Shown: positions 17,235 to 53,134 of the stretch, one piece after another
Layout of the letters: every line of letters begins with the position of its first letter
Numbering within the stretch: position 1 is the stretch's first letter
Assembly (NCBI RefSeq): GCF_020622265.1
Contig: NZ_JACNMQ010000002.1
Location: 124,001-188,000, forward strand
DNA: 64,000 nt
Direction: 5' to 3'
From: Halomonas sp. M20
GTDB taxonomy: Bacteria > Pseudomonadota > Gammaproteobacteria > Pseudomonadales > Halomonadaceae
Program-made: the position numbers and the translations under genes
The notes under the pieces: model-generated
The model's database searches: none
What the model was told of the DNA's origin: nothing
Seen by the model: only the letters and a program-made list of their open reading frames with translations

Positions 17235-17265
17235 TGTTACAAAAAGCCAAACTTCGTATACACGA
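17235..17265 (-). promoter_or_regulatory. EPS shared motif, site A
   Basis: Plus-strand TGTTACAAAAAGCCAAACTT, continuing to CGTATACAC, aligns with sites B (20578), C (46229) and D (53004). It is the weakest of the four. It lies 74 bp upstream of the stranded ops element, close to the 81-bp spacing at wza. Confidence 0.5.
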
Positions 17266-17289
17266 GCGTACTAACTTAGGGAAAACTGT

Positions 17290-17442
17290 GTAACCTGCTT
17301 TTTCCCATTGATCCAACGTTAGAAATTAACCTTCATAATTATTTAAAAAAACTTGAATTATCATGCCTACTAAAACTAGAAATCCGACTACCTCTCGGTG
17401 TCGGATCTCGCGTAATTAACCGCTCGTTTGATAAATAACTCA
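17290..17442. other. A/T-rich spacer before the IS481 remnant
   Basis: No gene is seen. The stretch is A/T-rich (CTTCATAATTATTTAAAAAA and similar) and may be the remains of the promoter that fed the stranded ops leader. An IS481-like end may lie near 17398-17412 (TGTCGGATCTCGCG). Confidence 0.3.
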
Positions 17443-18065
17443 GGCCGCTTGCTCTGCCATTCTTTCATCGCAGCAATCGGCGATCGATGGTGAAGCGCTC
17501 CACCATACCATTCGTTTGCGGTCGTCCCGCTTGATCAGGCGGTGTTCGATATCAAGGACTTGGCATTCCTGATCGAAGAGGTGGCGACCGCTGGGCTTAC
17601 GCTCACCCACCCATGTGAAGCGGTCGGTGAACGACTTGCCATTGTCAGTCAGCACCGTCTGGACCTTGAAGGGGGCCTTCTCTTCCATCCGTTTCATGAA
17701 CGCCCGCGCGTCCTTCGCGGACTGGCTGTGGCTGACCTCCAGATAGACCCAACACGTGGCTCGGTCGACGGCGACGTACAGATAGCGTTTCTACTGTTCG
17801 TCAGGCATCTGGGGCAGGTGCTTGATGTGATGTGCACGTAGCCCGGCTCGTAGTCCGTGAAGGCTTCGTCGCGGAGCTTCTCGTCATCGCCGGCGTCCTG
17901 CCTAGCCAGTTCTGCCAATGTCGGGACCTCACGTCGCTTGAGCATGCGATGGAGGCCCGAGCGTAACAGGTGAGGGTTCAGGAATTCACACGCTGTGATG
18001 AGGAGATCATCCAAGCCGAAGCGGAGGAACTCACGAGCCGTGATTAGCCCCGCCTCCTGCTCGGA
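17443..18065 (-). pseudogene. IS481-family transposase pseudogene
   Basis: Minus-strand reading gives FGLDDLLITACEFLNPHLLR, then EPGYVHI, a frameshift, an in-frame stop before the segment KRYLYVAVDRA, then KAPFKVQTVLTDNGKSFTDR and VLDIEHRLIKRDD, the IS481 integrase-core order. At least two frameshifts and one stop, and loss of the C-terminal part after about WWSASPSIADC, make it inactive. Confidence 0.75.
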
Positions 18066-18121
18066 AGTCAGCGTAGCTAACAGGTTGTGACACGTGTGTG
18101 ACCGGTCATAGACATCGTCAC

Positions 18122-18201
18122 GGTACCGCCATCGCCTATGTGGCCGAGCAGCGCGGCATGTTCTCTACGTCACCGAGGCAATCGCCGCCGTCTCGAAGTG
18201 A
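18122..18201 (+). pseudogene. Truncated duplicate of the phhC 3' end
   Basis: TATGTGGCCGAGCAGCGCGG and CATGTTCTC are followed directly by TACGTCACCGAGGCAATCGC and CGCCGTCTCGAAGTGA. The first part matches phhC around 9632-9672 and the second matches 9785-9820 (one mismatch in 36), so the 112 bp in between are deleted. The first block has drifted more (3-bp insertion and substitutions). It marks the far side of the IS-rich island. Confidence 0.85.
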
Positions 18202-18246
18202 TCAAAACCACGATAAACTCATGATCTTAACTTCCAAACCACTAAT

Positions 18247-18289
18247 GCCCGGCACCTTGTTTAACTTATTTGAACTGGTGCCCGGGCGT
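18247..18289 (-). terminator. Possible terminator downstream of galE
   Basis: TGCCCGGCACC (from 18247) and GGTGCCCGGGC (to about 18286) can pair with one bulge across a 20-base loop, just past the galE stop on the minus strand. There is no clear U-run after it, so function is uncertain. Confidence 0.4.
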
Positions 18290-18296
18290 TGCAATT

Positions 18297-19307
18297 TTAG
18301 TAACCGTTTGGATTTTTTGACTGCCAACGCCAGGTATCGGCCATCATCTCTTCGAGACCACACCGTGCTTGCCAGTCGAGCTCCTTCCGGGCCTTGGTAG
18401 GGTCGGCCCAGCACTCCGCCACGTCACCCTTCCTGCGTGCTTGCAGAGTATAAGGCACCCTTTTCCCGCTGATCGCCTCAAACGCCGCGACCATTTCCAG
18501 TACGGAATAACCGCGTCCCGTTCCCAGATTCCAGACGTGGGCGCCGGTGCAATTCTCAAGCACTTCTAGGGCCCTCAAATGCCCCTCGACCAGATCGACG
18601 ACATGAATATAGTCACGCACGCCAGTGCCGTCGCGGGTGGCGTAATCGGCGCCGAACACAGTGAGCTGCTCACGCTTGCCTACCGCTACCTGGGCGATAT
18701 AGGGCATCAGGTTGTTCGGCGGGCCTTGGGGGTCTTCTCCGATCTCGCCGCTGGGATGCGCACCTACCGGGTTGAAATAGCGCAACAACGCAATGGACCA
18801 GCGAGCATCCGCACGTGCCAGATCCTTGAGCACCTCTTCCACCACGAGCTTGGATTGCCCATAAGGGTTGGATGCCCTGGCCGTGGGAGCGCTCTCACTG
18901 AGCGGCATGCTTTCGGGCTCGCCATACACTGTCGCCGAAGAGCTGAATACCAGCCGATGAACACCCGCATCGGCCATGGCCTGGAACAGCGTTACGCTGC
19001 CGCCCACGTTATTAGCGTAATACGCCAACGGCTCGGCGACGCTTTCACCCACCGCCTTGAGCCCGGCAAAATGTAGGACAGCCTCGATGGTGTGTTCGGC
19101 AAACAGCTTATCCAGCAACTGCCGGTCGCGAATATCGCCTTCGATGAAGGTCAGCTGCCGCCCGGCAAGACGCTCCACTCGCCTGAGCGACTCCCTCGAC
19201 GATGTCGCCAGATTATCCAATGCCAGCACGGAATAGCCTGCCTCGAGCAGTGCCAGTACCGCATGCGAGCCGATATAGCCTGCTCCGCCGGTGACCAGAA
19301 CCGTCAT
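18297..19307 (-). CDS. galE: UDP-glucose 4-epimerase
   Basis: The 336-aa extended SDR has the usual GalE length. It shows [20 protein letters not shown] (NAD-binding GxxGxxG), [25 protein letters not shown] (catalytic Ser), [13 protein letters not shown] (YxxxK) and [18 protein letters not shown]. It interconverts UDP-glucose and UDP-galactose in the cytosol, supplying UDP-Gal for the polysaccharide. Its ATG overlaps the stop of the upstream epimerase by 4 bp (ATGA), indicating translational coupling. Confidence 0.95.
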
Positions 19308-20380
19308 GGCTCGCCCCCCTCACTCTCCAGCGCCGCGGCCTGTTTGGAGGTCGCGCCGTCTTTCAGAAAGCGGATATACCACGGCATGGCCTGGTGGATA
19401 CCGTCATTCAGCGCATGGCTTGGCGCGTAGCCAAGCAACCGAGCTGCCTTGCCGATGTCGGCCTGGGAATGGCGCACGTCGCCGGGGCGGAAGTCGCGAT
19501 AGATCGGCGCCTGGGCATAGGTAATACCCTGTTCATTCAGGGCATCGCGCAGGGCATCGAATAATTGGTTGAGCGTGGTCCGACCATTGACCGCAACGTT
19601 GAAGACTTCGGAGTGAATGTCATCATCCGCCACTGCTGCCAGCACATTGGCCTGCACGGCATTGTCCACGAAACAGAAATCGCGGCTCGTATCGCCATCG
19701 CCGTTGATGTAGACCGGTTCATCGGTGAGCATCGATGCCGTCCACTTGGGAATGACCGCCGCATAGGCGCCATCGGGATCCTGCCGAGGGCCAAACACAT
19801 TGAAATAGCGCAGCCCTACCGTCTTGCAGCCGTAGGTACGCGAGAACACATCTGCATAGAGCTCGTTAACGTACTTGGTTACCGCATAGGGTGAAAGAGG
19901 CTTGCCAATCACATCTTCAACCTTGGGCAGGCCTGGATGATCGCCATAAGTGGAGCTCGAAGCCGCGTAAACGAAGCGCTTCACATCGGCATCCCGCGCT
20001 GTCACCAGCATGTTCAGGAAACCATCGATGTTGGCGGTATTGGTGGCGATAGGATCCTTGACGGATCGCGGTACCGAGCCAAGTGCTGCCTGATGCAATA
20101 CGTAATCCACTCCCTCCATGGCGCGCTGACAATCACCAAGCTCACATATATCTCCTTCATGAAAAGAGAAGCGTGACCATTGCTCGGCGCTTACCAAGCC
20201 TTGTACTTCGTCAAGATTACGCTGGTAGCCCGTGGCAAAGTTGTCCAGCCCTACCACGGTTTGATCCAGCTTGAGCAGTTGCTCCAGAAGGTTGGAGCCG
20301 ATAAAGCCCGCTACGCCGCTGATCAACCAAACACGAGGCTGAGCCTGCAGTTCCATTTTTACCTTTTCAAAATCACTCAT
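19304..20380 (-). CDS. wbpP: UDP-N-acetylglucosamine 4-epimerase (WbpP/TviC family)
   Basis: The 358-aa SDR shows [72 protein letters not shown] (YxxxK) and [20 protein letters not shown]. This set is diagnostic of group-3 epimerases such as WbpP and TviC, which convert UDP-GlcNAc to UDP-GalNAc (and the uronic acid forms). With the divergent WbpO/TviB-type dehydrogenase at 22975 it would give UDP-GalNAcA. First gene of a two-gene unit with galE; shared-motif site B lies 198 bp upstream. Confidence 0.9.
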
Positions 20381-20577
20381 TAGACCTACACCTCGACGTT
20401 AGAACTATAAATATAATCTTATTGCATTAATATTTAAGCGACTAAAATTACGCAAATCCTATTAAATCGATAAAATTCGACGTAACAAATAATTATTTTT
20501 TACCAATCTTAGTACGATTAATTAATTAAAAAATTAATACTACATCTCATTGCCGCGAGCGCTTATCATACCACCAC

Positions 20578-20604
20578 GTTAACAAAAGTACACCTTTTGA
20601 AACA
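20578..20604. promoter_or_regulatory. EPS shared motif, site B (best palindrome)
   Basis: GTTAACAAAAGTACACCTTT followed by TGAAACA contains the perfect inverted repeat CAAAAG-TACAC-CTTTTG. The same orientation relative to minus-strand genes as at sites A, C and D suggests control of wbpP-galE, but it could also act on the plus-strand operon. Confidence 0.65.
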
Positions 20605-20767
20605 CAAGAAAAATAGGTGTAGAATATGTAATGCACTTGGCCGCAACCCCTGGTCATAAGCGCATAAATATCGATAAGGCTATATTGAATAAATGGTCGC
20701 CAAAGCGTGAAGGCATTTTTAATAATATATTTTCACGAATATTGTTAGGCCATTAATAATAGCCAAT

Positions 20768-20795
20768 GCGTGTCTGCAACAACCTGCAGACACGC
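20768..20795 (+). other. Strong stem-loop in the wbpM leader
   Basis: GCGTGTCTGCA and TGCAGACACGC are perfect 11-bp arms around ACAACC. It lies 122 bp before the wbpM-like start and is followed by CTATTCAAGAA rather than a T-run. It could be an attenuator-like or protein-binding leader structure. Confidence 0.55.
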
Positions 20796-20917
20796 TATTC
20801 AAGAATACATTGTGAAAACGTCGGGGACGTAAGTTTTTTTATGAAAATACCTCGTAAATTAGGGCGAAACACCCTTGGATATTCATGCCCGCCCCCAAGA
20901 GATTGAGGAAAAACAAC

Positions 20918-22954
<2,037 letters not shown>

Positions 22955-22974
22955 AAAACGAAGTAGGGATATAT

Positions 22975-24255
22975 ATGAATCATAAACTTGAAAAGGTACG
23001 CATCGGTATCATTGGTCTGGGTTACGTGGGTTTGCCATTGGCCGTCGAGTTCGGCAAGCAATACACCACCGTCGGCTTCGATATCAATGTCAAGCGCATC
23101 GCCCAATTGAACGACGGCATCGACACCACGCTGGAAGTCGAACCAGAATTGCTCGCCCAGGCCGAACGTTTGAGCTTCACCAACGATATCGAGCGCCTGC
23201 GCGACTGTAACGTCTATATCGTCACGGTGCCGACGCCCATCGACAAGCAGCGTTGCCCGGTTTTGACGCCGCTGCTCAAGGCAAGTGAGACCCTGGGCCA
23301 AGTTGTGGCGAAAGACGATATCGTCGTTTACGAATCGACCGTCTATCCCGGCGCTACCGAAGAAGATTGCCTACCCGTGATCGAGCGCGTCTCCGGGCTA
23401 GAGTACAATGTCGACTTCTTTGCCGGCTATAGCCCCGAGCGCATAAATCCCGGCGATAAGGAACACCGCGTCACCTCCATCAAGAAAGTGACCTCGGGCT
23501 CGACACCGGAAGTTGCGACGTTCATCGATACGCTTTACGCCTCGATCATCAATGCCGGTACCTTTCAAGCCAGCTCCATTCGCGTGGCCGAGGCCGCGAA
23601 AGTCATCGAAAATACCCAGCGCGACGTCAACATCGCCCTGATCAACGAACTCGCCGTCATCTTCAATCGCCTGGAAATAGACACCGAAGAAGTACTTCAG
23701 GCGGCCGGTACCAAATGGAACTTCCTACCCTTCCGACCCGGTTTGGTGGGTGGGCACTGCATCGGCGTGGACCCCTACTACCTGACCCATAAGGCGCAGC
23801 AAGTAGGCTATCACCCAGAGGTCATTCTCTCGGGACGACGTATCAACGACGGCATGGGTGCTTATGTCGCCGGTCAGCTCGTCAAGCAGATGATCAAGCA
23901 TTGCATTCAGGTGCAGGACTCCCGCGTACTCATCCTTGGCCTTACCTTCAAGGAAAACTGCCCCGATCTGCGTAATACCCGAGTTACCGACATTCTCAAG
24001 GAATTGGCGGACTACGACATTGCCGTGGACGTTCATGATCCGCAAGTCGACCCACAAGAAGCGCAAGACGAGTTGGGCGTACGTATCGTGGAGACCCCCG
24101 TCGCAGGCACTTACGACGCCATCATCCTGGCTGTCGCTCATCGGGAATTCGTCGAACTTGATGTCCAAAAAATCCGCTCCTGGGGCAAACCCGCCCATGT
24201 CCTTTACGACTTGAAGTATGCACTTCCCAAGGGCGCCGCCGATTTACGTTTGTGA
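22975..24255 (+). CDS. wbpO: UDP-N-acetyl-hexosamine 6-dehydrogenase (WbpO/TviB type)
   Basis: The 426-aa enzyme of the UDP-glucose/GDP-mannose dehydrogenase family begins [20 protein letters not shown], has [38 protein letters not shown] and the catalytic Cys in [20 protein letters not shown]. The pattern SPERINPGD and the length fit Vi-antigen TviB/WbpO, which oxidise UDP-GlcNAc or UDP-GalNAc to the uronic acid. With WbpP encoded divergently it would provide UDP-GalNAcA. GTAGGG sits just ahead of the ATG, and the gene starts 20 bp after wbpM. Confidence 0.92.
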
Positions 24256-24271
24256 AGAAGTGAACAAGATC

Positions 24272-25345
24272 ATGAAAATACTAATTATTGGCAACATGGG
24301 CTACGTAGGGCCCGCCGTTCTTCGTGAGCTGAGCGCACGCTATCCTTCGGCAGTGCTCCATGGCTATGACACGGCCTATTTCGCACACTGCTTGACCGGA
24401 ACTCACTATCTTCCCGAGCGGCATCTAGAGCGACAATTCTATGGCGATATACGCGCCATCACATCTGGGATGCTCGAAGGCTATGACGCCGTAGTGCAAC
24501 TGGCCGCAGTTTCCAACGATCCAATGGGTAGTCGCTTCGCCACGGCCACGGGGGACATCAATCATCGTGCCAGCGTCAGTATCGCCAAGGCGGCGGCACA
24601 GGCCGGCGTGCGCAACTTCGTCTTCGCTTCCAGCTGCAGCATTTATGGTGTTGCCAGTGGCCCGCCCCGTTGCGAAACCGATGCCGTCGCGCCCATCACG
24701 GATTATGCCAAGTCCAAGGTTCACACCGAGGAAGATCTGACGAAGATCGAAACGGACATGGTCATTACCAGCCTGCGCTTTGCCACGGCTTGCGGTATGT
24801 CCGACCGTCTACGCCTGGACCTGGTACTCAACGACTTCGTGGCAAGCGCCATCAGTCAAGGGCAGATCACCGTGCTAAGCGATGGGTCGCCCTGGCGGCC
24901 CTTGATCGATGTCACCGACATGGCTCGTGCCATCGACTGGGCCGTGCAGCGCCCGGCGGATAACGGCGGCCGCGTCTTGAGCGTCAATGCGGGTGCCAAC
25001 AGTTGCAACTATCAGGTACGCGATCTGGCCATGGCGGTGGCCGAGGCACTTCCAGGCACGACGGTGGACATCAACACCGAGGCGCCCGTAGATAGTCGCT
25101 CCTACCGCGTGGACTTCAGCCTGTTCGAACGCCTCGCCCCGGATCATCAACCGCAGAAGGCACTTTCCCACTCCATTAGCGGCTTGATCGAAGGTCTTGA
25201 GCGCATGGAGTTTGCCGATACCGAGTTCCGGTCATCGTCGCTCGTGCGCTTGCATGTCCTGCAAGGGCATATCGATGAAGGCCGTGTGACGGAAGAACTG
25301 CGATGGCAGAGACCACAGAAAACGCTGGAAAGGAGTCAGTCATGA
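24272..25345 (+). CDS. NAD-dependent epimerase/dehydratase (extended SDR), function open
   Basis: This 357-aa SDR begins KILIIGNMGYVGPAVLREL (GxxGYVG), with AVVQLAAVSNDPMGSRF, FASSCSIYGVASGPP and the YxxxK motif in ITDYAKSKVHTEEDL. An upstream in-frame ATG at 24218 lies inside the previous gene and adds non-homologous residues. The protein ends in ATGA overlap with the rfbF-type gene, so the two are coupled. It could be the 4,6-dehydratase, epimerase or reductase of the CDP-sugar pathway, but it does not look like RfbG. First member of a four-gene cassette. Confidence 0.8.
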   Translation: MKILIIGNMGYVGPAVLRELSARYPSAVLHGYDTAYFAHCLTGTHYLPERHLERQFYGDIRAITSGMLEGYDAVVQLAAVSNDPMGSRFATATGDINHRASVSIAKAAAQAGVRNFVFASSCSIYGVASGPPRCETDAVAPITDYAKSKVHTEEDLTKIETDMVITSLRFATACGMSDRLRLDLVLNDFVASAISQGQITVLSDGSPWRPLIDVTDMARAIDWAVQRPADNGGRVLSVNAGANSCNYQVRDLAMAVAEALPGTTVDINTEAPVDSRSYRVDFSLFERLAPDHQPQKALSHSISGLIEGLERMEFADTEFRSSSLVRLHVLQGHIDEGRVTEELRWQRPQKTLERSQS

Positions 25346-26118
25346 AGGTAGCGATCTTTGCCGGTGGCTTCGGTACCCGGCTCAGCGAAGAAACCACGAT
25401 TCGTCCCAAGCCGATGGTGGAAATCGGCGGCCGACCGATTCTCTGGCATATCATGAAGATCTACGCGCACTATGGCTTCAGAGAGTTCGTCATTCTGGGT
25501 GGATACCGCGTCGACTACATCCGCGACTATTTCCTCAACTATCGAGGCCACCAAACCGATTACACCGTCGACCTGAAGACCGGCAGCATCGAATGGTTAC
25601 AGAGTACCAACGAAGATTGGAAAGTCACCGTGCTGGACACTGGCGGCGACGCCATGACCGGTGGTCGCCTCAAGAAAGCCATGCCCTATTTAAGTGATGC
25701 CCCCTTCTGTCTGACCTATGGCGACGGCGTAAGCGATATCGATATCAAAGCGCTGATCGACACCCACCGTGCTTCGAAGGCCTGGTGCACGCTCACCGCC
25801 GTCTCCCAGCCCGGCCGCTACGGAGCGTTGCATCTAGATCGTTCCTCCACCCAGGTGAAGGGTTTTCGTGAAAAAGGCGTGAAAGACGGCGGCCTGATCA
25901 ATGGCGGTTTCTTCGTCTGCGAGCCGGATGTGTTCGAGCTCATCGACGGAGATCAGAGTGTTTGGGAAAACGGGCCGCTGACACGCATGGTAGAACTCGG
26001 CAAGCTGGGCTACTACCACCATAAAGGCTACTGGCAAAGCATGGACTCATTGCGAGACAAGATGGTCCTGGAAGCAGCCTGGGAGAGCGATCCCCCCTGG
26101 AAGCTGTGGAAAGACTAA
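25342..26118 (+). CDS. rfbF: Glucose-1-phosphate cytidylyltransferase
   Basis: The 258-aa nucleotidyltransferase begins KVAIFAGGFGTRLSEETTIR followed by PKPMVEIGG, the diagnostic RfbF signature, then FVILGGYRVDYIRDYFLNY, LTYGDGVSDIDI (metal-binding D), INGGFFVCEPDVFELI and YHHKGYWQSMDSLRDK. It makes CDP-glucose from CTP and glucose 1-phosphate, normally the first step of 3,6-dideoxyhexose or branched sugar pathways. AGGAG precedes 25342. The expected partner CDP-glucose 4,6-dehydratase (RfbG) is absent here. Confidence 0.94.
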   Translation: MKVAIFAGGFGTRLSEETTIRPKPMVEIGGRPILWHIMKIYAHYGFREFVILGGYRVDYIRDYFLNYRGHQTDYTVDLKTGSIEWLQSTNEDWKVTVLDTGGDAMTGGRLKKAMPYLSDAPFCLTYGDGVSDIDIKALIDTHRASKAWCTLTAVSQPGRYGALHLDRSSTQVKGFREKGVKDGGLINGGFFVCEPDVFELIDGDQSVWENGPLTRMVELGKLGYYHHKGYWQSMDSLRDKMVLEAAWESDPPWKLWKD

Positions 26119-26150
26119 ACCATGCACTTTCCCCTTAAAGAGGTAATGAC

Positions 26151-27485: not shown

Positions 27486-27494
27486 GAGTAAGCC

Positions 27495-28043
27495 ATGATT
27501 TTTCATGAAACGACATTGAAGGACGCCTGGCTGATCGAACTCGAGCCCCGGGGCGATCAACGCGGTTTCTTTGCTCGCACAATGTGCAAGGAAGAGTTTG
27601 CCCAGCACGGGTTGTTGAACGACTTCGTACAACAAAACACTTCTTTCTCAGCCCAAAAAGGAACCTTGAGAGGGCTGCACTACCAAATGCAACCTCACGG
27701 CGAAGCCAAGCTGGTGCGCTGCCTGCGTGGTGCAATCGTCGATATTATCGTCGATGTTCGAGCCGACTCACCTACCTTCCTACAACATCAACAGTTCGAA
27801 CTTACGGATAGCAATCGCTCACAGCTTTATGTGCCCCCCGGCTATGCTCATGGCTTCCAAACACTGAGTAATGACGTGGAAGTCAGCTATCTAGTATCCG
27901 CCGCCTACTGTCCGCAAGCAGAGCGCGGGCTCCGCTATGATGACGAGCGCCTACAAATCGACTGGCCCGTACCCGTCACGGTGCTTTCGGAGAAGGATGC
28001 ACATTGGCCACTGATCGACGAAGCAACCAAACCACTGTATTAA
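27495..28043 (+). CDS. RmlC-type sugar 3,5-epimerase (cupin)
   Basis: The 182-aa protein fits the RmlC/RfbC family length. It has LIELEPRGDQRGFFAR, QQNTSFSAQKGTLRGLHYQM (catalytic His in GLHYQ) and LYVPPGYAHGFQTLS (general acid Tyr region). Classical members epimerise dTDP-4-keto-6-deoxyglucose at C3 and C5. No rmlA, rmlB or rmlD is nearby, while rfbF is two genes upstream, so it likely acts on a 4-keto CDP-sugar (as in RfbF-linked pathways). Gap to the SAF gene is 9 bp. Last gene of the plus-strand operon. Confidence 0.88.
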   Translation: MIFHETTLKDAWLIELEPRGDQRGFFARTMCKEEFAQHGLLNDFVQQNTSFSAQKGTLRGLHYQMQPHGEAKLVRCLRGAIVDIIVDVRADSPTFLQHQQFELTDSNRSQLYVPPGYAHGFQTLSNDVEVSYLVSAAYCPQAERGLRYDDERLQIDWPVPVTVLSEKDAHWPLIDEATKPLY

Positions 28044-28078
28044 ATGCCATATCCCGAGTTATCGTTAACAGGCTTCCA

Positions 28079-28110
28079 GCACAAGCGCCGATACGCAATG
28101 GCGCTTGTGC
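28079..28110 (+). terminator. Hairpin ending the plus-strand sugar operon
   Basis: GCACAAGCGCC (28079-28089) and GGCGCTTGTGC (28100-28110) are perfect 11-bp arms, 36 bp after the RmlC-type stop. There is no T-run, so it may act as a Rho-dependent or RNA-stabilising end. Confidence 0.5.
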
Positions 28111-28251
28111 AATCGGTTCAAGGTCGAGAGCGGCGATCACGAACAATAGACGATAGCGTCACCATTTGATTTCATCATCCGGGATCCTGCATCAGCGAAA
28201 CTACAGCAATTCTGCACTGTATATATTGTCCAAAAGCTTGCCATTAAAACG

Positions 28252-28279: not shown

Positions 28280-28330
28280 GAAATTGCTCCAGATAACAGC
28301 TTTATCAATCCACTTTAATGCTCAGTCAGC

Positions 28331-30225: not shown

Positions 30226-30290
30226 AACAATTTCGCCCCCTGCGTAAGGACATTATTTTTTATAAAAACAAGAGATTAGCTATACAGTAA

Positions 30291-42176: not shown

Positions 42177-42213
42177 ACGTTACACCACTGTTAATAAAAA
42201 ATTATGGTCGCCA

Positions 42214-44445: not shown

Positions 44446-44450
44446 ATACT

Positions 44451-44906
44451 TCAGCTCCCTAGCTTGGTTTGCCAGGCATCGGCGGCTTGGGTCAGCAATT
44501 TGTGAACATGGGCAAATGCCTCGCGGCTTTTGCGATATGGATCGGGAATCTTGCAACCCTGACTGCCACCATCCGGTAGCCAACGACCATACAGCATGGT
44601 CTTACCGGTAGCCGCGGGAGCGAGTTCACTTATATGACGCCGCTGGCCTTCACTCATGACCAGTATCAGGTCAGCGGCGTCGATCATGTCACGCGTGATG
44701 CGCCGCGAACGGTGGGCCTCCAAATCCAGCCCGGATTCCGCTGCAAACTCCTTGGCAAAAGGCGCCGCGCCACTACCTTCATGGGCTCCTGGCGCTAGCC
44801 CCGCCGACTCGATTCGCAATTCCGGTAGGCGGGCTTTGAATAACGCCTCGCCCACCGGACTGCGACAAATGTTGGCGGTGCAGACCACCAGGATGGAGTG
44901 AAACAT
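44451..44906 (-). CDS. wzb: Low-molecular-weight protein tyrosine phosphatase (Wzb)
   Basis: The 151-aa protein has the P-loop VVCTANICRSPVGEALF (C-x5-R-S) at residues about 8-16 and the general-acid loop KIPDPYRKSREAF. It dephosphorylates the tyrosine tail of Wzc, cycling assembly of the export complex. Length fits the family (about 147-150). Five bases separate it from wza and from wzc on either side, so all three are one translational unit. Confidence 0.95.
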   Translation of the reverse strand: MFHSILVVCTANICRSPVGEALFKARLPELRIESAGLAPGAHEGSGAAPFAKEFAAESGLDLEAHRSRRITRDMIDAADLILVMSEGQRRHISELAPAATGKTMLYGRWLPDGGSQGCKIPDPYRKSREAFAHVHKLLTQAADAWQTKLGS

Positions 44907-44911
44907 GGCTA

Positions 44912-46024
44912 TTAGAGCTCGCCTATGCTGGTACCGGTGATGTCACCCGGCAGCGTGGCCGTGGGTAGCAGCAGGCTGATGACGTTGTTCCAACGAGCCA
45001 ACGGCGCCGCCGTCACATACACCACGTCTTTCGGCTGCAGCGGGAAATAGGAACCCATGTTCAGAGCCACGGCGTTGGTGATATCGAGCTGATAGACGGT
45101 CGCCATCTTTTCATCACCGGCTGGCTTGCTGCGGATGACGAAGATGCCGGTAGGTTCCGCGCGCTGGTTATCCAGGCCACCGGCGCGTGCCAAGGCATCC
45201 GTCAACGAGATGCGCTCGTTGCCAACCGGGAGGTTGCCGGCGTTGCGCACTCGTCCCAGAACGGCGACGTTCTGGTTTTCCGCGCTGGGCACATGCACTA
45301 CGTCTCCCTCGCGCAGCAAGCGGTTCTGCGTCAAATCACCCTCCTTGAGCATGGCGAACAGCGACAGGGACTGCTCTTCGCCGCCGCGATTCAGGGTCAC
45401 ATCGTGCCAGTCGGCATCCGCCGTCGGCCCGCCTGCCTGACTGATGACGTCGAGTACCGTCATGGGCGTATTGGTGATGGGCACCATGCCGGGGGTGCCG
45501 ACGGCGCCGGTGACATAGGCCTTCTTGGACTTGAAGGCCGCGATGCCGACCTCGACCTGGGGCTCGGTGATGAAGTTCGAGAGGCGGCTGGTAATGATGC
45601 GCCGTACCTCATCGACCGACTTACCTTCAATCTTGACCCGCCCGATGTAAGGATAGTAGATGTAGCCATTGGGCTGGACCACGGTACCCGATTCCGTCGC
45701 GCTGCGTTCGGCACCGGCGGGAATGGTCAGCTCGGGATGGTCATAGACGACGATATTGAGCACATCGCCTGGCCCTATTTCGTATTCATAGGATGCGATG
45801 GCCTCACTCAGGTCCCGCGACATGCTCTTCGCGCCCTTGGCCTCTACTTGCTGGCGGTACTCGGCGATCATGGTAGGCGTGATCGCCTTGAGGTCCACCA
45901 GGTTGTCCAGCGGCGGTGCTTTCTCTGCCGCTTCGTAATCGATATGGCCACCCGGCGAATAGGCGCAGGCGGAGATGCTGAGCGTTAATGCTGCAAGCAA
46001 GCCAATACGTGTTGTCTTTTTCAT
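44912..46024 (-). CDS. wza: Outer-membrane polysaccharide export lipoprotein (Wza)
   Basis: The 370-aa precursor starts KKTTRIGLLAALTLSISACA, a lipoprotein signal with the lipobox around LSISAC. Then follow the export domain YEIGPGDVLNIVVYDHPELT, TVVQPNGYIYYPYIGRVKIE, EPQVEVGIAAFKSKKAYVTG (SLBB-type repeats from about residue 175) and a second SLBB region NVAVLGRVRNAGNLPVGNER. Forms the octameric outer-membrane channel for the polymer. First gene of the long minus-strand operon; preceded by ops (46137-46148) and by shared-motif site C. Confidence 0.95.
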   Translation of the reverse strand: MKKTTRIGLLAALTLSISACAYSPGGHIDYEAAEKAPPLDNLVDLKAITPTMIAEYRQQVEAKGAKSMSRDLSEAIASYEYEIGPGDVLNIVVYDHPELTIPAGAERSATESGTVVQPNGYIYYPYIGRVKIEGKSVDEVRRIITSRLSNFITEPQVEVGIAAFKSKKAYVTGAVGTPGMVPITNTPMTVLDVISQAGGPTADADWHDVTLNRGGEEQSLSLFAMLKEGDLTQNRLLREGDVVHVPSAENQNVAVLGRVRNAGNLPVGNERISLTDALARAGGLDNQRAEPTGIFVIRSKPAGDEKMATVYQLDITNAVALNMGSYFPLQPKDVVYVTAAPLARWNNVISLLLPTATLPGDITGTSIGEL

Positions 46025-46136
46025 TTTGTGATCCTGTCTAACAAATTTTCGAATTCGAAGTTTTTGGTTCGAGGATTAGGTTTAGGCCCGTAAAAAGCTT
46101 GAACCGAGAGGTGAAGTAGCGTGAATTCCTTTTTCC

Positions 46137-46148
46137 CACGCTACCGCC
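46137..46148 (-). promoter_or_regulatory. ops element (RfaH recruitment) upstream of wza
   Basis: Minus-strand GGCGGTAGCGTG is identical to the Escherichia coli ops consensus that pauses RNA polymerase and recruits RfaH. It is positioned in the 5' leader of the 18-kb wza operon, which is the expected setting. The same leader hairpin and ops occur again at 17150-17189. Confidence 0.85.
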
Positions 46149-46228
46149 CGAGAGATACTCATTGGCATTTCTCTCAGACCACTACCTAAAGGAACCGGCG
46201 CTTGGTGGTGCCTCACTGTCAATCTTTA

Positions 46229-46257
46229 TGTTACAAAAGTACAACCTTTGAACACAC
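46229..46257 (-). promoter_or_regulatory. EPS shared motif, site C
   Basis: Plus-strand TGTTACAAAAGTACAACCTT then TGAACACAC closely matches site B (20578). It is 205 bp upstream of the wza start and 81 bp upstream of the ops element. Confidence 0.65.
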
Positions 46258-46373
46258 AATATTACTAATTTGGAGCGCGTATGCATAACTGAAATTCCTA
46301 GTTCCGTGAGTATTAGTAAACTAATGTAACGCTAGATATCCATTTTACCTAATTTTTCGCAGCAAACTGCATA

Positions 46374-46421
46374 ATAAAAAGGGAAGGCGCGGCATCGGTA
46401 TGTCGCCACGCCTCCCCTTTA
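46374..46421 (-). terminator. Rho-independent terminator of the giant gene
   Basis: On the minus strand AAAGGGGAGGCG pairs with CGCCTTCCCTTT (one mismatch), followed by TTATTATG; the loop is about 20 bases. It lies 33 bp past the stop at 46454, so the giant gene is transcriptionally separate from wza. Confidence 0.85.
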
Positions 46422-46453
46422 TGCCAGCCAGCCAGCTAGCTTACTTGACTACC

Positions 46454-49400
46454 TCACTGGAACAGGTAGATCGGCTCGCTTACTCCTCCTTGGGCAAAGG
46501 CCTCGGTGGTATTGGGATCCTCGATGACTGATGCCACGAAGCCAAGAGGCAATGCGTCACTGCCATCGAAGCTATCTGTTCCGTTCAGGAAGGTGTCGTA
46601 GACGAATTCAGCAGAAGCGTCAGCGTAGCCATTTTCATCCAGCTGAATATCGGCAAACTGAAATTCCGCTGCATTGTTGGCCGGGAATGCATTGTCTTCC
46701 AGTCGCGACTCAACGATGCTTGCGATATCGTTAGTGTCATTGGTAACCGGTTGGTGGCCTTTCGTCATGACTACTCGCACCCACTCATTCGCGGGTCCTG
46801 ACACTTCCACGCTAGGCATTTCCACGAAGCTGCCATCTTCTGCGCGCTCTACATTCCCGACGCTGAGTTTCACCTCAAGGTTCTTGGATGCCTCGGTTAC
46901 CAGCGCCTGCGCACCGGTCTGACTGCCATCCCCCATCAGCTGCGCATTGGCGACACTGCCGTCGGTAAAGGCGATATAGACCTTGGAGCCGATCAGCTCG
47001 GCGCCGGACACCCCTCCTACATCCCAAGCAGGCAGCGAGTCGGTATCGACGCCCGCTTCGCCACTCTTGGACATGCCTGCAATCGAATTGGGATCCATGT
47101 CGCCACTGAAAGTGACGGTCTCACCCTGACTGAAGCCTCCATCTTCCGTTGCAGAGAACTTCACCATTGCGCCTTTATAGCCGCCGTTGACCGCGCTATT
47201 CGCAGGGTCAGGATCGTCCCCTTGCTGGAAGTAGTGCTCGTACTCGGAAGGCTGTATCACACCCGTTCCACCGGCGCTATCGATAGTGAGATCCTTGGCT
47301 GCGGTATCGCCACCCTTGCCATCCGGATCAAACACGCTGTCATCGTAGAGAGCCGAGCTCACATCGAAATAAACGGCTGCGATCTTCTTGTCACCGGTGT
47401 TGGTTATATTGAAGGAACCGCTAACGTAGTTCGAATCCTGAACATCCTCTCCATTCGGAGTGATCGTGATCACAGCAGAACCAACTTCACCCTCAGCATA
47501 TTGCTCCGACGTATCCAGATTGGCATCGGCAAACACCTGTTCCGCACTGTTCGGCACAGCTTCATTATCGGCAGCATTATTGCCTTCTGAAACGGTGACG
47601 TTCAGATACTCCCAGCGCGCTTCATAGGAATCTAGCGTCTGGTAGTCATTGGACGTCACGCCCACGGCTGTCGGGGTGTCGGCATCGAGCAGGTTGGCGA
47701 GTACAGCACTCGGCAATGCTTGTGCTTCAGCGGTAACAAAACCCTCCGTATCGTTGGCGCGCAGGCCACCGAGAACTTCATCGTCAGCACCGTAAAGCGT
47801 CACGAGAGGTGTGACCGTGCCGGCACTCTTGTCGATCTGCAGCGTCATGCCCACATTGGCAACGTCCTTCAGCCCCAGGCTTTTATCGGTCAGCAGATCC
47901 TGAAGTTCATACTGTTCATCGACAGCCTCAGGATCTTGCTTGCCATTACCATTGGACCAGAGCTGTACGATATTGCCGTTGTTGCCCCCTAGGGTGAGTT
48001 TGATCAACTCGTTTTTACCCTGACTCCCAGTGCCGAAAAGAACCCCTTGCTGTGCATAGTTGGGAATATGATCGCTGGCCAGCCCTTGAGCTTCCAGGGC
48101 CGCGGGGAAGGCATTGGAGAAGCGAGTGGCGACCTCTACCAGCGTCTGAGCGGGATCGCTCAAGTCAACGTTCTTGATAAAGTCGTTGGCACTATTGCCC
48201 TTGTATATATCGCCATCGGAGGTATTGATCACCAGCTGGCCATTCTCGACGCTGGTCACTACCGTCTCGTCGCCGATTCCCCCTAGCAGACCATCGAAGC
48301 CGCCTTGTTCCAGCGGGCTTCCCGCGGTCTCGAAGTCCAGCTCAAATGCCGTGACGTACTCGATATCGTCTTCCGTATCGGCGCCATTTCCGGCATCAGG
48401 CTCGCCCAGAGTGATGTCGAAGCTGGTTTCATAGGAAGTAACCCCGTTACCGGCGTTATCCTGATAACTTCCCTCCTTGACGCCGACGCTGAAGTTGCCC
48501 TCCGGCCAAGCGTTCGTTCCTTCGGGCGGGGTGATGACATAGGTGACGACGGCGCTCTTGCCATCATTGCCAAGCACAATGGCGTCGTTACCCTCCACAA
48601 GACTGGAAGAGGCCGGCACAATGCCAGTGAAGACCAGTTCATCACCCTGAATGGCACCGATATCGATCCCCTCGTCATCACTGAGGGTTACCGTCACCTG
48701 CAAGCCACTGTCGCTGTCAGTCGCCTCTTCAACCTGAATAGAATCGACCTGAGGAGCTACGTCGTCGACGTGAGGCGGCGTTGTATCCGTTGCTGAATCG
48801 AGGCCTAGCTGCTTGATCTCGATGGCGTTGATCTTGGGATTCTGAGCACCATGACTGAATGCCAGATTGATGACCTCGTCCTGAGCGGTGAACGTATAGG
48901 TCCGAGACAGACCGTATCCAATCAAATCTTCCTGAGACGCATCGGAACCCAGAGCCCTCTCGGCTTCGGCCAGCGGATTGATACCGGCGAAGGCCTCGGG
49001 CACGTTGCCATCTACCGCCACATCGAAGACACGGCCACCCTCCTCATTGAAGATGCCGTTCCAGTTTTCAGTGTAATACAGGGTGATCGAATAGGTGCCA
49101 CCGGCGGTTACCGGGAAGCCATATTCCAGCATCTGTTCGTCGTTGCTGTTATCGCTACGCTCATTGGTGTAAAGCTGCCAGGGCACAGTATCGTCACCGA
49201 GACCCGAGAGATCGATTTCGTTCTGCTCATCCGACGATTTGCCACTATAGGTGTCCTTGGTATTGCCCAGCAGGTATTCGAATCCGGACGTCTTGTCGCC
49301 GAGCCAGTCAGGGCCGCCGTCGGTGGCGGTGACATCATCGCCACCGGCGTTGATCCGATACAGCACACGCTCCTCGGAGTAGGTGATACGGGTACCCTGC

Positions 49401-52400
49401 TCCGTCAGCTCGATATTGAAGACACTGGCACCGCTGTCAGGATTGAAGTTCTCGAACTGGTCGCCTGTCAGACTGATCGTGGCGGTCTGCATGCTGGAAG
49501 GATCGGTAAATACCAGCTTGACCACGCCGTCTTCCATACGGTAGCTGACATCCTTGTCAGTGAGATAACTATCCAGGATCTGGATGTCGTCTTCCGGCTG
49601 GAAATCTTCCACGACACTGCCATCGATGGATGCGAAGGAACCACGAACGCTGTCTGCGCCACCTCCGCCGACAAAGGTATTGTCGCCAGAACCCGCGATC
49701 AGGATGTTGTCGCCATCATTACCAGTGACAGTGAAGTTTGCATCGGAACCGCTGCCGTCGAAGTTTTCGACGCTGTCCGCCAAAGGCGCCAGAATCTCAT
49801 CGCTACCGGTATAAACGAGGGTGTCGATACCGTCGGTGCCCTCGGCCCCGACTTCTTCTCCAGTAGTACCTACCTGGATTTCATTGCCCCGCGCTTCGAT
49901 TTCGAGATTGTAGAAGTCGATCGCAGATAGACCGTCTTCACTTGCCGCATCGAGTGCAGAGGTTTCCGCGAGGAAACCAACCGCCGCGCCAGAGGGAAGC
50001 ACTGTGTCGCCATCGCTGATGGTATGCGAGCCGGTAAGAATGTCCTGCAGTACGCCGGGCGGTAAGGAGAAACCATTGAGATCGATTGGGATGATCTTGT
50101 CATCGCCAAGACGGTAACCGGCCTCGAGTTCAAAGCTATTAGCCGTATTGACAGCAAGCTGCAGTCCAAGAGTGCTGACATCACCATCGGTCAGTTCCGG
50201 CACCGCGACACGCGCCAGGGTCGTGTAGGTATCTTCGACTTCATACCCCACCTCGAAGCCCGCGGCGAGCTCCCCATCGATGACCATGGTGCCAAATACC
50301 ATACGCACATAGTTGGCCTGGGTGCCATCGCCGAGCATCACGCCAGTAAGCTGGCCACTTACGAGGCTCTGGTCAGAGGACATCCAGTTCTTGATCTTGG
50401 AATTGATCACCAGGCTTTCGACATCATCACCCGGGTTGATGCCTACATGCATGGCGTCCCGGGCACTGTTGTCGCTACCCACTACGGTGCCACCGACGAC
50501 TTTCTTGATCTGGAAGATCGGAGCATTGCCACCAGGAATGATGTTGCCGCCAAGATCGTAAAGTCCATCTTCTTGCTGATCCGCTTCGAAATTTTCGCCC
50601 TCGGTCTTGGCATCACGGTTCGGGGTCTTGCCATCCAGAGCAGCACCCATCAGACCGGTGTCGTTGACGGTTCCCGGATAGGGGCTCTTGGTAGGATCGA
50701 AGTCGAGCACGATGCGCTCGCCGGCGGCCAGATCCATGCCGTTGTCGGCATCGAATTCAAAGGGGTCATGGATATGATCGATACCGTCCTGGTCACGATC
50801 GGTGGAATTGACGACAATGCTGCCGGCCAGGGGTACTTTGCCATTATCAGGCTGAAGTATTTCGATTGCAGGGCCGCCTTGTTTGAAGATCGTAGCCCAT
50901 ACCGAGCCCTGAAAAGCCTTTTGGCCGTTGAATGCCATGAGGTCGTCACCAATGGAAGCAAGCCCCAACGGCGCACCGCCTATATCCACCACATCGCGTT
51001 CTTCCGCCAAGCTCGGGCCGCTTCCCTCCTCATTGGACTTCATCAAGCCGTTTTCATCGCGGCCCATGATGGTCAGGTTACCTTGACCGAGACTTGCGGC
51101 GAAAATCGCCCCGGACATTTTCATGCCACTGTCGGGATCGTCGAAGATCGTCGAGGTGTATTCGGTCAGGCCGTTGATGGAGCCTTTGCCGGAATCGATG
51201 GCACCGTCGGTATAGCCCCCTTCGAGATAGTTGCCTTCGATGGGGTTGATATTAGCCACTACCGAGTCGAAGTCCCTGGGCATGCCGCTTGCACCAAGTA
51301 CCACTTCGCCATTGATTTCCTTGGGCGCATCGGGATAGTCGCTGACAAGGTAGGTTTGGCCGGATTCGGTAATGTAATACTGCTCACCCGGCGTTACCGC
51401 GATGACTCGACCTGTCAGATCACCGGCATCTGCGTTGTCGTATTTTTCTTCGACAGTGCGCAAGAAAGCCATCACGACATCATAGTCGCTGCTGTTTTCA
51501 CCCTCTTTATCAATGTTCGAGAGCATCAGGAACGAGTTTTCCACGCCATCTTCCGGGGTGAAGAGCAGCCCTGACTGACCACCGCTGGCACGGGTAGGGT
51601 TGGGATGACCGCCGTACACCAGGGTCAGCATTTCGCCGGTATCCGGATCTTCCCATTGATAGGTGGCTGCCCCGCCTTTACCTGCGGAAAGCTCACGCCC
51701 GTCTAGATCGTCCGAGCGAGTGATCTCATGAAACTGGTCATAGTTCCTGGGATCCCAACCCTTTTCTAGATTGATACTGTCGCCACCGTTGCCATCACCA
51801 TTGTTGAGATTGGTGGCGATAAAATTGGCTAGCTGCTGGTTATCGGTATAGGCTCCGCTCTCGCCGGCCTCGCCGATCGGGCGTCCGCCCCAGCTGTTGT
51901 TGGCACCGTTGTCGTAAGTCCAGACGCGACCGTCTTCCGTTACTTCAACGTCGTAGGCATTACGATAGCCTGCTGAATAGATCTGAACCGGGCCCTCAGG
52001 ATCGATCTTGCTGCCATTGAGACCATCATTACCGCCGAAAGGATCACCGGCGTCATTCTCGCCTTCGCGGGTAGGATCATCGAGAGTGGGGATGTCATAG
52101 ATATATTTGCGCCCCGATTCGGAGTCGGTAAGCACGGGCAGCGTTTTCAGCTTATCGAGGTCGACCTCGAGAATCGCGCCGCTGTAGGCGGTTTCCTGCT
52201 GGCCGGCAAAGTTGTTGGAAGGCGCACCGGTATTGGTATTACCGCCACTGGCAACAATCATACGCTCACTGATCAACTTGCCCTGGCTGTCGAGCTCTTG
52301 CACGACTTCGAGACCGTTGAGGGAGTGGTTCTCTTCGGAGCGAGCCAGGCCGCGCACAATATCCGTCGCCTGCCAGCCGGATTCGGTCTGCTCGAGACGT

Positions 52401-52843
52401 GTGATGGTGCCGGAGTTGGTGTCCAGGTTTGAATCTTCTCCATCGCCACCGGCACCAATGCGGCTATCGCTGGAGGTCACATAGACACTGACCGCTTGCT
52501 TGCCATCGATCAACACCGGGTTGCCATCGGCGTCGTACCGCGACACGACGCTGATACCCGTTACCTGCCGCTCATCACCGCTGGCGTTCGTACCGTCATC
52601 GTTGTGGTTAGTGATGCCTTTGACTTGGTCAAGAGTTTCGGCGCTGGTGACATAAAACGTGTTGGTCGGATTTTCATCATCAGGATTGGGGCTGCCAAAA
52701 GCGACGGTCAGAACCTTGATGCTGCCATTAACCTCAGTGACATAAAGTCGTCCGTCAGGGCCCCACTCCAATGCCGTAGGTTGAGATAGCGTTACCTTTC
52801 CGTTGAGATCGAGACCACTCCTGGAGAAATCGTTTGTGACCAT
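46454..52843 (-). CDS. Giant (2129-aa) acidic secreted-type protein: beta-propeller, RTX-like segment, malectin, Ig-like domains
   Basis: There is no N-terminal signal peptide; the protein is very Asp/Gly/Asn-rich, as expected for a type I-secreted or calcium-bound surface protein. Residues about 10-560 resemble a sugar-dehydrogenase/NHL-type beta-propeller (QPTALEWGPDGRLYVTEVNG; SAGYRNAYDVEVTEDGRVWT). Near residue 1040 are GNDGDNILIAGSGDNTFVGG repeats (haemolysin-type-like). Residues about 1160-1345 form a malectin domain (VLYRINAGGDDVT; SITLYYTENWN; VFDVAVDG). An Ig-like stretch (about 1355-1480), a lectin-like segment and a carbohydrate-binding-like C-terminus follow. The ATG at 52843 follows GCAGGG. 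It is probably a polymer-binding matrix protein; that is inference. Confidence 0.85.
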   Translation of the reverse strand: MVTNDFSRSGLDLNGKVTLSQPTALEWGPDGRLYVTEVNGSIKVLTVAFGSPNPDDENPTNTFYVTSAETLDQVKGITNHNDDGTNASGDERQVTGISVVSRYDADGNPVLIDGKQAVSVYVTSSDSRIGAGGDGEDSNLDTNSGTITRLEQTESGWQATDIVRGLARSEENHSLNGLEVVQELDSQGKLISERMIVASGGNTNTGAPSNNFAGQQETAYSGAILEVDLDKLKTLPVLTDSESGRKYIYDIPTLDDPTREGENDAGDPFGGNDGLNGSKIDPEGPVQIYSAGYRNAYDVEVTEDGRVWTYDNGANNSWGGRPIGEAGESGAYTDNQQLANFIATNLNNGDGNGGDSINLEKGWDPRNYDQFHEITRSDDLDGRELSAGKGGAATYQWEDPDTGEMLTLVYGGHPNPTRASGGQSGLLFTPEDGVENSFLMLSNIDKEGENSSDYDVVMAFLRTVEEKYDNADAGDLTGRVIAVTPGEQYYITESGQTYLVSDYPDAPKEINGEVVLGASGMPRDFDSVVANINPIEGNYLEGGYTDGAIDSGKGSINGLTEYTSTIFDDPDSGMKMSGAIFAASLGQGNLTIMGRDENGLMKSNEEGSGPSLAEERDVVDIGGAPLGLASIGDDLMAFNGQKAFQGSVWATIFKQGGPAIEILQPDNGKVPLAGSIVVNSTDRDQDGIDHIHDPFEFDADNGMDLAAGERIVLDFDPTKSPYPGTVNDTGLMGAALDGKTPNRDAKTEGENFEADQQEDGLYDLGGNIIPGGNAPIFQIKKVVGGTVVGSDNSARDAMHVGINPGDDVESLVINSKIKNWMSSDQSLVSGQLTGVMLGDGTQANYVRMVFGTMVIDGELAAGFEVGYEVEDTYTTLARVAVPELTDGDVSTLGLQLAVNTANSFELEAGYRLGDDKIIPIDLNGFSLPPGVLQDILTGSHTISDGDTVLPSGAAVGFLAETSALDAASEDGLSAIDFYNLEIEARGNEIQVGTTGEEVGAEGTDGIDTLVYTGSDEILAPLADSVENFDGSGSDANFTVTGNDGDNILIAGSGDNTFVGGGGADSVRGSFASIDGSVVEDFQPEDDIQILDSYLTDKDVSYRMEDGVVKLVFTDPSSMQTATISLTGDQFENFNPDSGASVFNIELTEQGTRITYSEERVLYRINAGGDDVTATDGGPDWLGDKTSGFEYLLGNTKDTYSGKSSDEQNEIDLSGLGDDTVPWQLYTNERSDNSNDEQMLEYGFPVTAGGTYSITLYYTENWNGIFNEEGGRVFDVAVDGNVPEAFAGINPLAEAERALGSDASQEDLIGYGLSRTYTFTAQDEVINLAFSHGAQNPKINAIEIKQLGLDSATDTTPPHVDDVAPQVDSIQVEEATDSDSGLQVTVTLSDDEGIDIGAIQGDELVFTGIVPASSSLVEGNDAIVLGNDGKSAVVTYVITPPEGTNAWPEGNFSVGVKEGSYQDNAGNGVTSYETSFDITLGEPDAGNGADTEDDIEYVTAFELDFETAGSPLEQGGFDGLLGGIGDETVVTSVENGQLVINTSDGDIYKGNSANDFIKNVDLSDPAQTLVEVATRFSNAFPAALEAQGLASDHIPNYAQQGVLFGTGSQGKNELIKLTLGGNNGNIVQLWSNGNGKQDPEAVDEQYELQDLLTDKSLGLKDVANVGMTLQIDKSAGTVTPLVTLYGADDEVLGGLRANDTEGFVTAEAQALPSAVLANLLDADTPTAVGVTSNDYQTLDSYEARWEYLNVTVSEGNNAADNEAVPNSAEQVFADANLDTSEQYAEGEVGSAVITITPNGEDVQDSNYVSGSFNITNTGDKKIAAVYFDVSSALYDDSVFDPDGKGGDTAAKDLTIDSAGGTGVIQPSEYEHYFQQGDDPDPANSAVNGGYKGAMVKFSATEDGGFSQGETVTFSGDMDPNSIAGMSKSGEAGVDTDSLPAWDVGGVSGAELIGSKVYIAFTDGSVANAQLMGDGSQTGAQALVTEASKNLEVKLSVGNVERAEDGSFVEMPSVEVSGPANEWVRVVMTKGHQPVTNDTNDIASIVESRLEDNAFPANNAAEFQFADIQLDENGYADASAEFVYDTFLNGTDSFDGSDALPLGFVASVIEDPNTTEAFAQGGVSEPIYLFQ

Positions 52844-53134
52844 TTTCAAACCCTGCGTAATGTGATTATGAACTCCCAACCTCTTCGTGCTGGAAGAAAT
52901 CTGCTGGACGCTCGAAAATCATCCTGTGTCACGCGTTGTAGCGAGTACGCGTTCGATGACATCGGAAATCCTAGGTCACAATCATCGCCTTTAATTACAC
53001 AAAGTAACAAGAATGGTTCTTTTGAAACAATTTGATCCAAAAATTAATACGCGATCACTTTTTGTCGATAGACTTATTCCTAATTGAGTACTAAATGGAC
53101 TCAGCAAAAGTTAGTTACATTTATAAATGCAGCA
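52844..53134 (-). promoter_or_regulatory. Upstream region of the giant gene
   Basis: No gene is seen between the giant gene start and the dadA terminator. It holds shared-motif site D (53004-53030). An A/T-rich stretch from about 53036 to 53130 is a plausible promoter zone. No ops element is present. Confidence 0.5.
53004..53030 (-). promoter_or_regulatory. EPS shared motif, site D
   Basis: Plus-strand GTAACAAGAATGGTTCTTTT followed by GAAACAA aligns with sites B and C and forms a CAAGAA/TTCTTTTG dyad. It is 161 bp upstream of the giant gene start. Confidence 0.55.

What the first reader, a model, noticed from the sequence alone, without database searches (positions are those of the whole stretch)
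17235..53030. Shared inverted-repeat motif upstream of four polysaccharide transcription units
Seen directly: four places carry a related plus-strand sequence of about 27 bp, GTTA(A)CAAAAGTACA-CCTTTTGAAACA. B at 20578-20604 is a perfect CAAAAG-N5-CTTTTG dyad, C at 46229-46257 is nearly identical, D at 53004-53030 keeps the outer parts and the dyad, A at 17235-17265 is degenerate. All four keep the same orientation relative to a minus-strand gene: wza, the giant gene, wbpP-galE, and the stranded leader. Three start codons lie 161-205 bp away. Inference: a common regulator or promoter module coordinates polymer assembly, precursor synthesis and the matrix protein.
Basis: partly seen in the sequence, partly recalled or inferred. 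Interest (0 to 1): 0.78.

Follow-up and report, generated by a model that had tools for sequence, protein, structure and literature searches.

The report
Shared operator for slime-making genes
In a salt-loving bacterium, several genes for making the outer slime carry a related DNA switch just upstream, and the same kind of switch sits in front of a known type of sensor-regulator, which suggests who may turn the slime genes on together.

Summary
The four sites exist, with the stated orientation and spacing. The shared element, however, is not the CAAAAG-N5-CTTTTG dyad: that is exact in 4 of 6 B orthologues and 0 of 20 A, C and D promoters. What recurs, read along the transcribed strand, is a direct repeat of TGTA/TGTT half-sites in 10- and 20-bp steps; the wza copy is GTAA-N6-TGTA-N16/17-GTAAC in 12 relatives. 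Leave-one-group-out matrices place B, C and D above all 798,400 background positions, and A below one. Against: a wza-only model finds C and A but not B or D.

The layout is that of OmpR/PhoB-family boxes, especially the RstA box TACA-N6-TACA. A pattern merged from C and D occurs four times in 3.9 Mb: C, D, the promoter of the genome's RstA/BfmR-like response regulator, and one coding site. Nine other OmpR-family regulator regions score far lower. A and C also carry ops elements, and RfaH is encoded.

Best reading: an RstA/BfmR-type two-component system coordinates polymer export, the giant protein and, less surely, sugar precursors (B); RfaH sustains the two long operons. Nothing has been tested at the bench.

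The parts
46219..46268 (-). C: operator of the wza operon, AGTA-N6-TGTG ... TGTAAC
   Evidence: R2 (relatives' wza only) hit, E 3.5e-5 genome-wide, 25.6 bits; conserved in relatives
52993..53029 (-). D: operator of the giant gene, TGTTTC ... TGTTAC-N4-TGTA
   Evidence: R1 hit; orthologous promoters; 10-bp pair
20575..20604 (-). B: box upstream of the wbpP-like epimerase and galE genes, TGTTTCAAAAGGTGTACTTTTGTTA; weakest member
   Evidence: R1 hit; leave-one-out 25.6 bits, 0 of 798,400; not found by R2 (3.9 bits); no 10-bp pair (6.2 bits)
17224..17273 (-). A: wza-type operator in front of a leader without wza
   Evidence: R2 hit, E 0.0049 genome-wide; 34 of 44 bases identical to the C box of G009
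46137..46148 (-). ops element of the wza leader, GGCGGTAGCGTG
   Evidence: exact match; GGCGGTAG upstream of 17 of 23 wza loci
17150..17161 (-). ops element of leader A, GGCGGTAGTGTG
   Evidence: exact match
20565..20570 (-). candidate -10 (TATGAT) of the B promoter
   Evidence: TATRAT or TATGGT at this place in 5 of 5 orthologues that have the box (by eye)
44912..46024 (-). wza, outer-membrane export protein
   Evidence: Pfam Poly_export, SLBB, Wza_C
46454..52843 (-). giant acidic protein, 2129 aa, malectin domain
   Evidence: Pfam Malectin E 1.6e-11; homologues in 6 of 14 genus genomes
19304..20380 (-).
   Evidence: Pfam Epimerase
18297..19307 (-).
   Evidence: Pfam GDP_Man_Dehyd and Epimerase

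Best explanation
The sites are operators for one OmpR/PhoB-family response regulator, most likely this genome's RstA/BfmR-type two-component system (response-regulator gene on contig C7 at about 178.2 kb, followed by a histidine-kinase gene). Regulator dimers sit on head-to-tail TGTA/TGTT half-sites spaced by one or two helical turns, close upstream of the promoter, and recruit RNA polymerase in place of a good -35 hexamer. They do so at the wza export operon (C), the giant gene (D), a second wza-type leader (A) and, less certainly, the epimerase genes (B). The same kind of box lies 75 bp upstream of the regulator's own start codon, consistent with autoregulation. In A and C the transcript then passes an ops/JUMPstart element, where RfaH should load and keep polymerase going through the long operon. 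Shown: conserved tandem repeats, their scarcity elsewhere in the genome, the similar box at the regulator gene, ops elements, an RfaH gene. Inferred: who binds, activation rather than repression, RfaH action, and B's membership.
For: Invariant GTAA, TGTA and GTAA columns 10 and 20-21 bp apart in 12 wza promoters of relatives. Exact TGTA-N6-TGTA, the RstA box read on the other strand (PMC4117788 passages), in 6 of 13 wza promoters of this type, with one mismatch in 6 and with two in the window's own. Leave-one-group-out recovery of A, B, C and D. A matrix made only of A, C, D and D-paralogue boxes gives the RstA/BfmR-like gene region 15.2 bits (1 of 799,320 background positions reaches this) and nine other OmpR-family regulator regions at most 6.8. 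GTWAYNTTGTGTR occurs at C, D, this promoter and one coding place only. Histidine kinase next door. DNA-binding domain closest to solved RstA domains, receiver to BfmR. BfmRS sets K-locus capsule transcription in Acinetobacter baumannii (PMC4334535 passages). RfaH over its cut-off in 14 of 14 genus genomes.
Against: A model of relatives' wza boxes does not find B or D (3.9 and 6.5 bits; absent at E<=10). B lacks the 10-bp pair (6.2 bits). R3, trained on everything including the regulator's box, finds only the regulator, D and C at E<=10, with E 0.86, 1.5 and 7.8, so none is significant by E-value alone, and A is not among them. I knew the regulator's box when writing the pattern. The regulator is in all seven other genomes whose regulator regions were searched for it, including three without this wza box, so presence does not discriminate; its box scores fall to 5.0, 5.0 and 2.8 bits in G006, G011 and G013. 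It misses the NCBIfam RstA cut-off, 252 against 330 bits. Other regulator families were not surveyed.
Confidence: 0.55

Rival explanations
1. Another OmpR/PhoB-family regulator, for instance the CpxR/OmpR-like one at C11:247.7 kb, binds the tandem sites, and the box at the RstA/BfmR-like gene is a coincidence or a shared family preference.
For: The tandem layout is common to the family. The CpxR/OmpR-like protein has reciprocal best hits in G009, G010 and G002 and none in G006, G011 and G012, so it follows the box better than the RstA-like one, except that G013 has a wza box without it.
Against: Its own gene region has no such box (best 4.96 bits). At the three recognition-helix positions that contact DNA in Klebsiella RstA (Arg199, Val203, Arg207), only the RstA-like and the PhoB-like proteins of ten have R, V, R (by eye).
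Confidence: 0.17
2. A regulator of another family (for example LuxR/FixJ, MarR or a c-di-GMP-responsive activator) binds the sites.
For: Only Trans_reg_C (PF00486) regulators were surveyed. A GGDEF-EAL protein lies in the window at 56138-58039. The B dyad is itself kept in 4 of 6 orthologues, which fits a symmetric dimer there.
Against: Half-sites point the same way at 10- and 20-bp steps in C and D, typical of OmpR/PhoB-family boxes; the dyad is not shared.
Confidence: 0.15
3. Two separate elements: a wza-type box (A, C) and a B/D-type box (TGTTTCAAAA-N10-TGTTA), read by different regulators.
For: R2 finds A and C but not B and D; a pattern from B and D, with up to 3 mismatches, finds only B and D in the genome.
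Against: D also has the 10-bp pair seen at C; leave-one-out matrices join all four.
Confidence: 0.1
4. Chance similarity of AT-rich promoter DNA, or copies of one promoter spread by duplication, without a common regulator.
For: The regions are AT-richer than the genome (34-44% GC against 58%), and A is plainly a relative of the wza leader.
Against: Local shuffles reach the scores in 2, 0, 1 and 0 of 2000; B, C and D boxes persist in orthologous promoters.
Confidence: 0.03

Closest known systems
RstA/RstB and the RstA box
   Same: Tandem half-sites TACA-N6-TACA (TGTA-N6-TGTA on the other strand), exact in 6 of 13 wza promoters of this type; the candidate regulator's DNA-binding domain is closest to solved RstA domains.
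   Different: The targets here are polysaccharide genes; further half-sites lie 20-21 bp away; the protein misses the NCBIfam RstA cut-off; the box of the window's own wza has two mismatches.
BfmRS of Acinetobacter baumannii and the capsule K locus
   Same: A regulator with a close relative here sets transcription of a Wza/Wzc-type capsule locus (PMC4334535, passages).
   Different: No BfmR operator sequence was seen in the papers looked at, so operators could not be compared; a giant protein gene as target is not described in those passages.
JUMPstart/ops and RfaH
   Same: Exact ops elements in leaders A and C; RfaH over its cut-off.
   Different: Acts on elongation, after the operator step; absent at B and D in the window and in 6 of 23 wza leaders.
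Multi-promoter polysaccharide regulons such as syp/SypG or vps/VpsR (recalled, from no call)
   Same: One regulator, several promoters in one locus.
   Different: Other regulator families and other sites, by recall.

Membership tests
OmpR/PhoB-family tandem operator | Half-sites in the same direction about 10 bp apart | tested here: met
   A, C and D: WGTW-N6-TGTR present in 1 of 1, 13 of 13 and 5 of 6 promoters; not B, 0 of 6
OmpR/PhoB-family tandem operator | Binding by a phosphorylated response regulator | not testable with these tools
   needs binding assays
RstA box | TACA-N6-TACA on one strand | tested here: inconclusive
   exact in 6 of 13 wza promoters; imperfect in the window's A, C and D; absent in B
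RstA (NCBIfam equivalog) | Score over the curated cut-off of 330 bits | tested here: not met
   252.4 bits; hence called RstA/BfmR-type only
RstA/BfmR-type two-component system | Response regulator with receiver and winged-helix domain next to a histidine-kinase gene | tested here: met
   Response_reg and Trans_reg_C; HisKA and HATPase_c in the next gene
RstA/BfmR-type two-component system | Control of polysaccharide genes in this organism | not testable with these tools
   inferred from shared boxes
JUMPstart/ops-RfaH | ops sequence in the leader | tested here: met
   A and C; not B or D
JUMPstart/ops-RfaH | RfaH encoded | tested here: met
   14 of 14 genus genomes over cut-off
   4 of 6 B, 0 of 13 C, 0 of 6 D, 0 of 1 A promoters

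The most novel reading that the evidence does not exclude
An RstA/BfmR-type envelope system, autoregulated through the same kind of box, has become the local master switch of a Halomonas matrix programme: polymer export, a giant malectin-domain protein and sugar precursors, through operators within one locus, with RfaH as a second lock on the long operons.
Probability: 0.45. Interest if true: 0.6.

Novelty: new member of a known kind. Interest (0 to 1): 0.45.

Why it matters
If true, it gives polysaccharide-producing Halomonas and Billgrantia a named candidate regulator and exact operator positions, extends the BfmR-capsule link beyond Acinetobacter, and ties a giant protein of unknown function to the same switch. 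Each step can be tested with gene deletions, reporter fusions and one purified protein.

Tried and rejected
Dyad as the common element: rejected. A plain promoter (-35/-10) reading: only B shows a clear candidate -10 kept in its orthologues (by eye); sigma-54 and ECF readings were considered by eye only, without a call. Regulator near the sites: none of two-component type among the 30 window proteins scanned (not all window ORFs were scanned), and none seen by eye among the ORFs beside wza in L017-L020 and L023. An HTH protein (16754-17077), an ArgP-like LysR regulator (4278-5174) and a GGDEF-EAL protein (56138-58039) are in the window and were not tested as binders.

Weak hits set aside: R2 at C12:56068 (E 0.5) and the fourth pattern hit at C13:4529 lie inside reading frames. 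The R1 hit at C10:293741 (E 2.7) was read but its gene was not identified. In the genus search with R1, 15 of 15 hits with E below 0.4 are A-D sites, but of the 10 weaker hits only 3 are (many of these sites were in the training set, and up to 150 candidates per genome were scored). One of 11 Trans_reg_C hits of the own genome (C14:41716, 28 bits) gave a frame that does not look like a regulator and was dropped, leaving 10. The regulator comparison used 80 of 147 hits: all of G000, G009, G010, G013, G006, G011 and G012, 1 of 9 of G005, 8 of 12 of G002, none of G001, G003, G004, G007 and G008. Matrix training left out the Billgrantia and H. korlensis wza boxes and the decayed D boxes of G002 and G013.

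Literature: searches on Halomonas polysaccharide regulation listed 10, 10 of 20 and 8 papers; by their titles and abstract starts none describes this operator or regulator, and none was opened except PMC4334535. The ops search listed 15 of 77 papers, none of which holds the word Halomonas. Searches for a BfmR binding motif led to none; PMC5967708 was searched for six motif terms and holds none. Papers seen as passages: PMC4117788 and PMC4334535; the others as search listings only.

Full report
What was checked. The window lies in a Halomonas genome (G000, 3.9 Mb; 14 genomes of the genus searched; nearest named relative found 'Uncultured Halomonas sp. isolate 2-214', 96% in Wza).

What the shared element is. 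Upstream of wza, 12 promoters of relatives keep a block that reads along the transcribed strand GTAA-N6-TGTA-N16/17-GTAAC; G4 T5 A6 A7, T13 G14 T15 A16 and G35 T36 A37 A38 are invariant. The three half-sites point the same way, 10 and 20 or 21 bp apart. The dyad bases fall between them and vary. D orthologues keep TGTTKCAAAA-N10-TGTTAC-N4-TGTA in four genomes (G000, G009, G010, G005) and have decayed in G002 and G013; B orthologues keep TGTTTCAAAAGGTRTACTTTTGTTA in four genomes, a changed form in G002, and nothing recognisable in G013. The exact dyad is in 4 of 6 B, 0 of 13 C, 0 of 6 D and 0 of 1 A promoters; TGT-N17/18-TGTWA is in 5 of 6, 12 of 13, 4 of 6 and 1 of 1.

Is it more than chance. 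Leave-one-group-out matrices score B, C and D above all of 798,400 background positions, and A above all but one. Local dinucleotide shuffles reach the scores in 2, 0, 1 and 0 of 2000 for A, B, C and D. Model R1, which contains these sites, has A, B, C and D as its only own-genome hits with E<0.03, then one at 2.7. Against: R2, built only from relatives' wza promoters, finds C (E 3.5e-5) and A (E 0.0049) genome-wide, but neither B nor D. So A and C are one box; D is tied to them by its 10-bp pair; B is tied mainly to D.

Who binds. No two-component regulator is among the window proteins scanned. The tandem layout is that of OmpR/PhoB-family regulators, and TGTA-N6-TGTA is the classic RstA box on the other strand (PMC4117788, passages); it is exact in 6 of 13 wza promoters of this type, namely the six Billgrantia and H. 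korlensis ones. I then compared the gene regions of the ten usable OmpR-family regulators of this genome. A matrix made only from A, C, D and D-paralogue boxes gave 15.2 bits to the RstA/BfmR-like one and at most 6.8 to the other nine; 1 of 799,320 background positions reaches 15.2. The site, CTCGTAACCTTGTGTAGCAAGGTGTAGCATTG, holds CGTA, TGTA and TGTA in 10-bp steps and starts 75 bp before the start codon. By eye the block is present in 8 of 8 orthologues fetched, but under this matrix its score falls from 15.2 to 13.8, 12.5, 9.5, 8.2, 5.0, 5.0 and 2.8. The pattern GTWAYNTTGTGTR, merged from C and D with N where D orthologues vary, occurs four times in the genome: C, D, this promoter and the start of a proC-like coding region (reversed control: 1 hit). 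I had seen the regulator's box before writing that pattern. R3, trained on all these boxes, has three hits at E<=10: the regulator, D and C, at E 0.86, 1.5 and 7.8 (150 of 193 candidates scored), so these are the best places in the genome but not significant by E-value alone.

The candidate. Its DNA-binding domain is closest to solved RstA domains (2naz E 2.7e-45, 2mlk and 4nhj about 1e-28), its receiver to BfmR and RstA. It misses the NCBIfam RstA cut-off (252 against 330 bits), so I call it RstA/BfmR-type. A histidine-kinase gene follows. In Acinetobacter baumannii BfmRS sets K-locus capsule transcription (PMC4334535, passages). It has reciprocal best hits in all seven other genomes searched for it (G009, G010, G013, G006, G011, G012, G002), including three without this wza box, so the wiring, if real, is specific to a lineage while the regulator is general.

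Second layer. A and C carry exact ops elements (with one mismatch allowed the count in the window, 4, is what chance gives, so the support is position and conservation). GGCGGTAG lies upstream of 17 of 23 distinct wza loci; the six without are the Billgrantia and H. korlensis ones (L017 left out as the same place as L005). RfaH is over its cut-off in 14 of 14 genus genomes.

Mechanism by step. Shown: conserved tandem boxes, their scarcity elsewhere, a similar box at the regulator gene, ops and RfaH. Inferred: binding by the RstA/BfmR-type regulator, activation close to the promoter, autoregulation, RfaH action, and B as a member. Verdict: a new member of a known kind, with a concrete and testable regulator; overall confidence 0.55.

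Noticed in passing
window 9820-18165: About 8.3 kb with glycosyltransferase, acyltransferase and HTH genes and leader A have no colinear match in the nearest relative G009, where the flanks adjoin. Leader A resembles the wza leader (box 34 of 44, ops hairpin 39 of 47 bases) but has no wza behind it.
   Followed up: partly
window 46454-52843; L037, L038: The giant protein (2129 aa from ATG, no cysteine, 17% Asp+Glu, malectin domain; RTX repeat below cut-off) has homologues in 6 of 14 genus genomes; second copies in G009 and G002 have TGTRAG-N4-TGTAA just upstream.
   Followed up: partly
L010, L011, L012, L015: wza genes of another type carry instead a short inverted repeat TTAC-N3/4-GTAA upstream of ops (by eye), perhaps another arrangement of the same half-site.
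   Followed up: no
G000:C7:564547-564800 (L039, L040): Two short stretches 63-65% identical to the N-terminal part of the giant protein lie elsewhere in the genome.
   Followed up: no
L043: The orthologue of the B epimerase gene in G010 is reported with one in-frame TAG.
   Followed up: no
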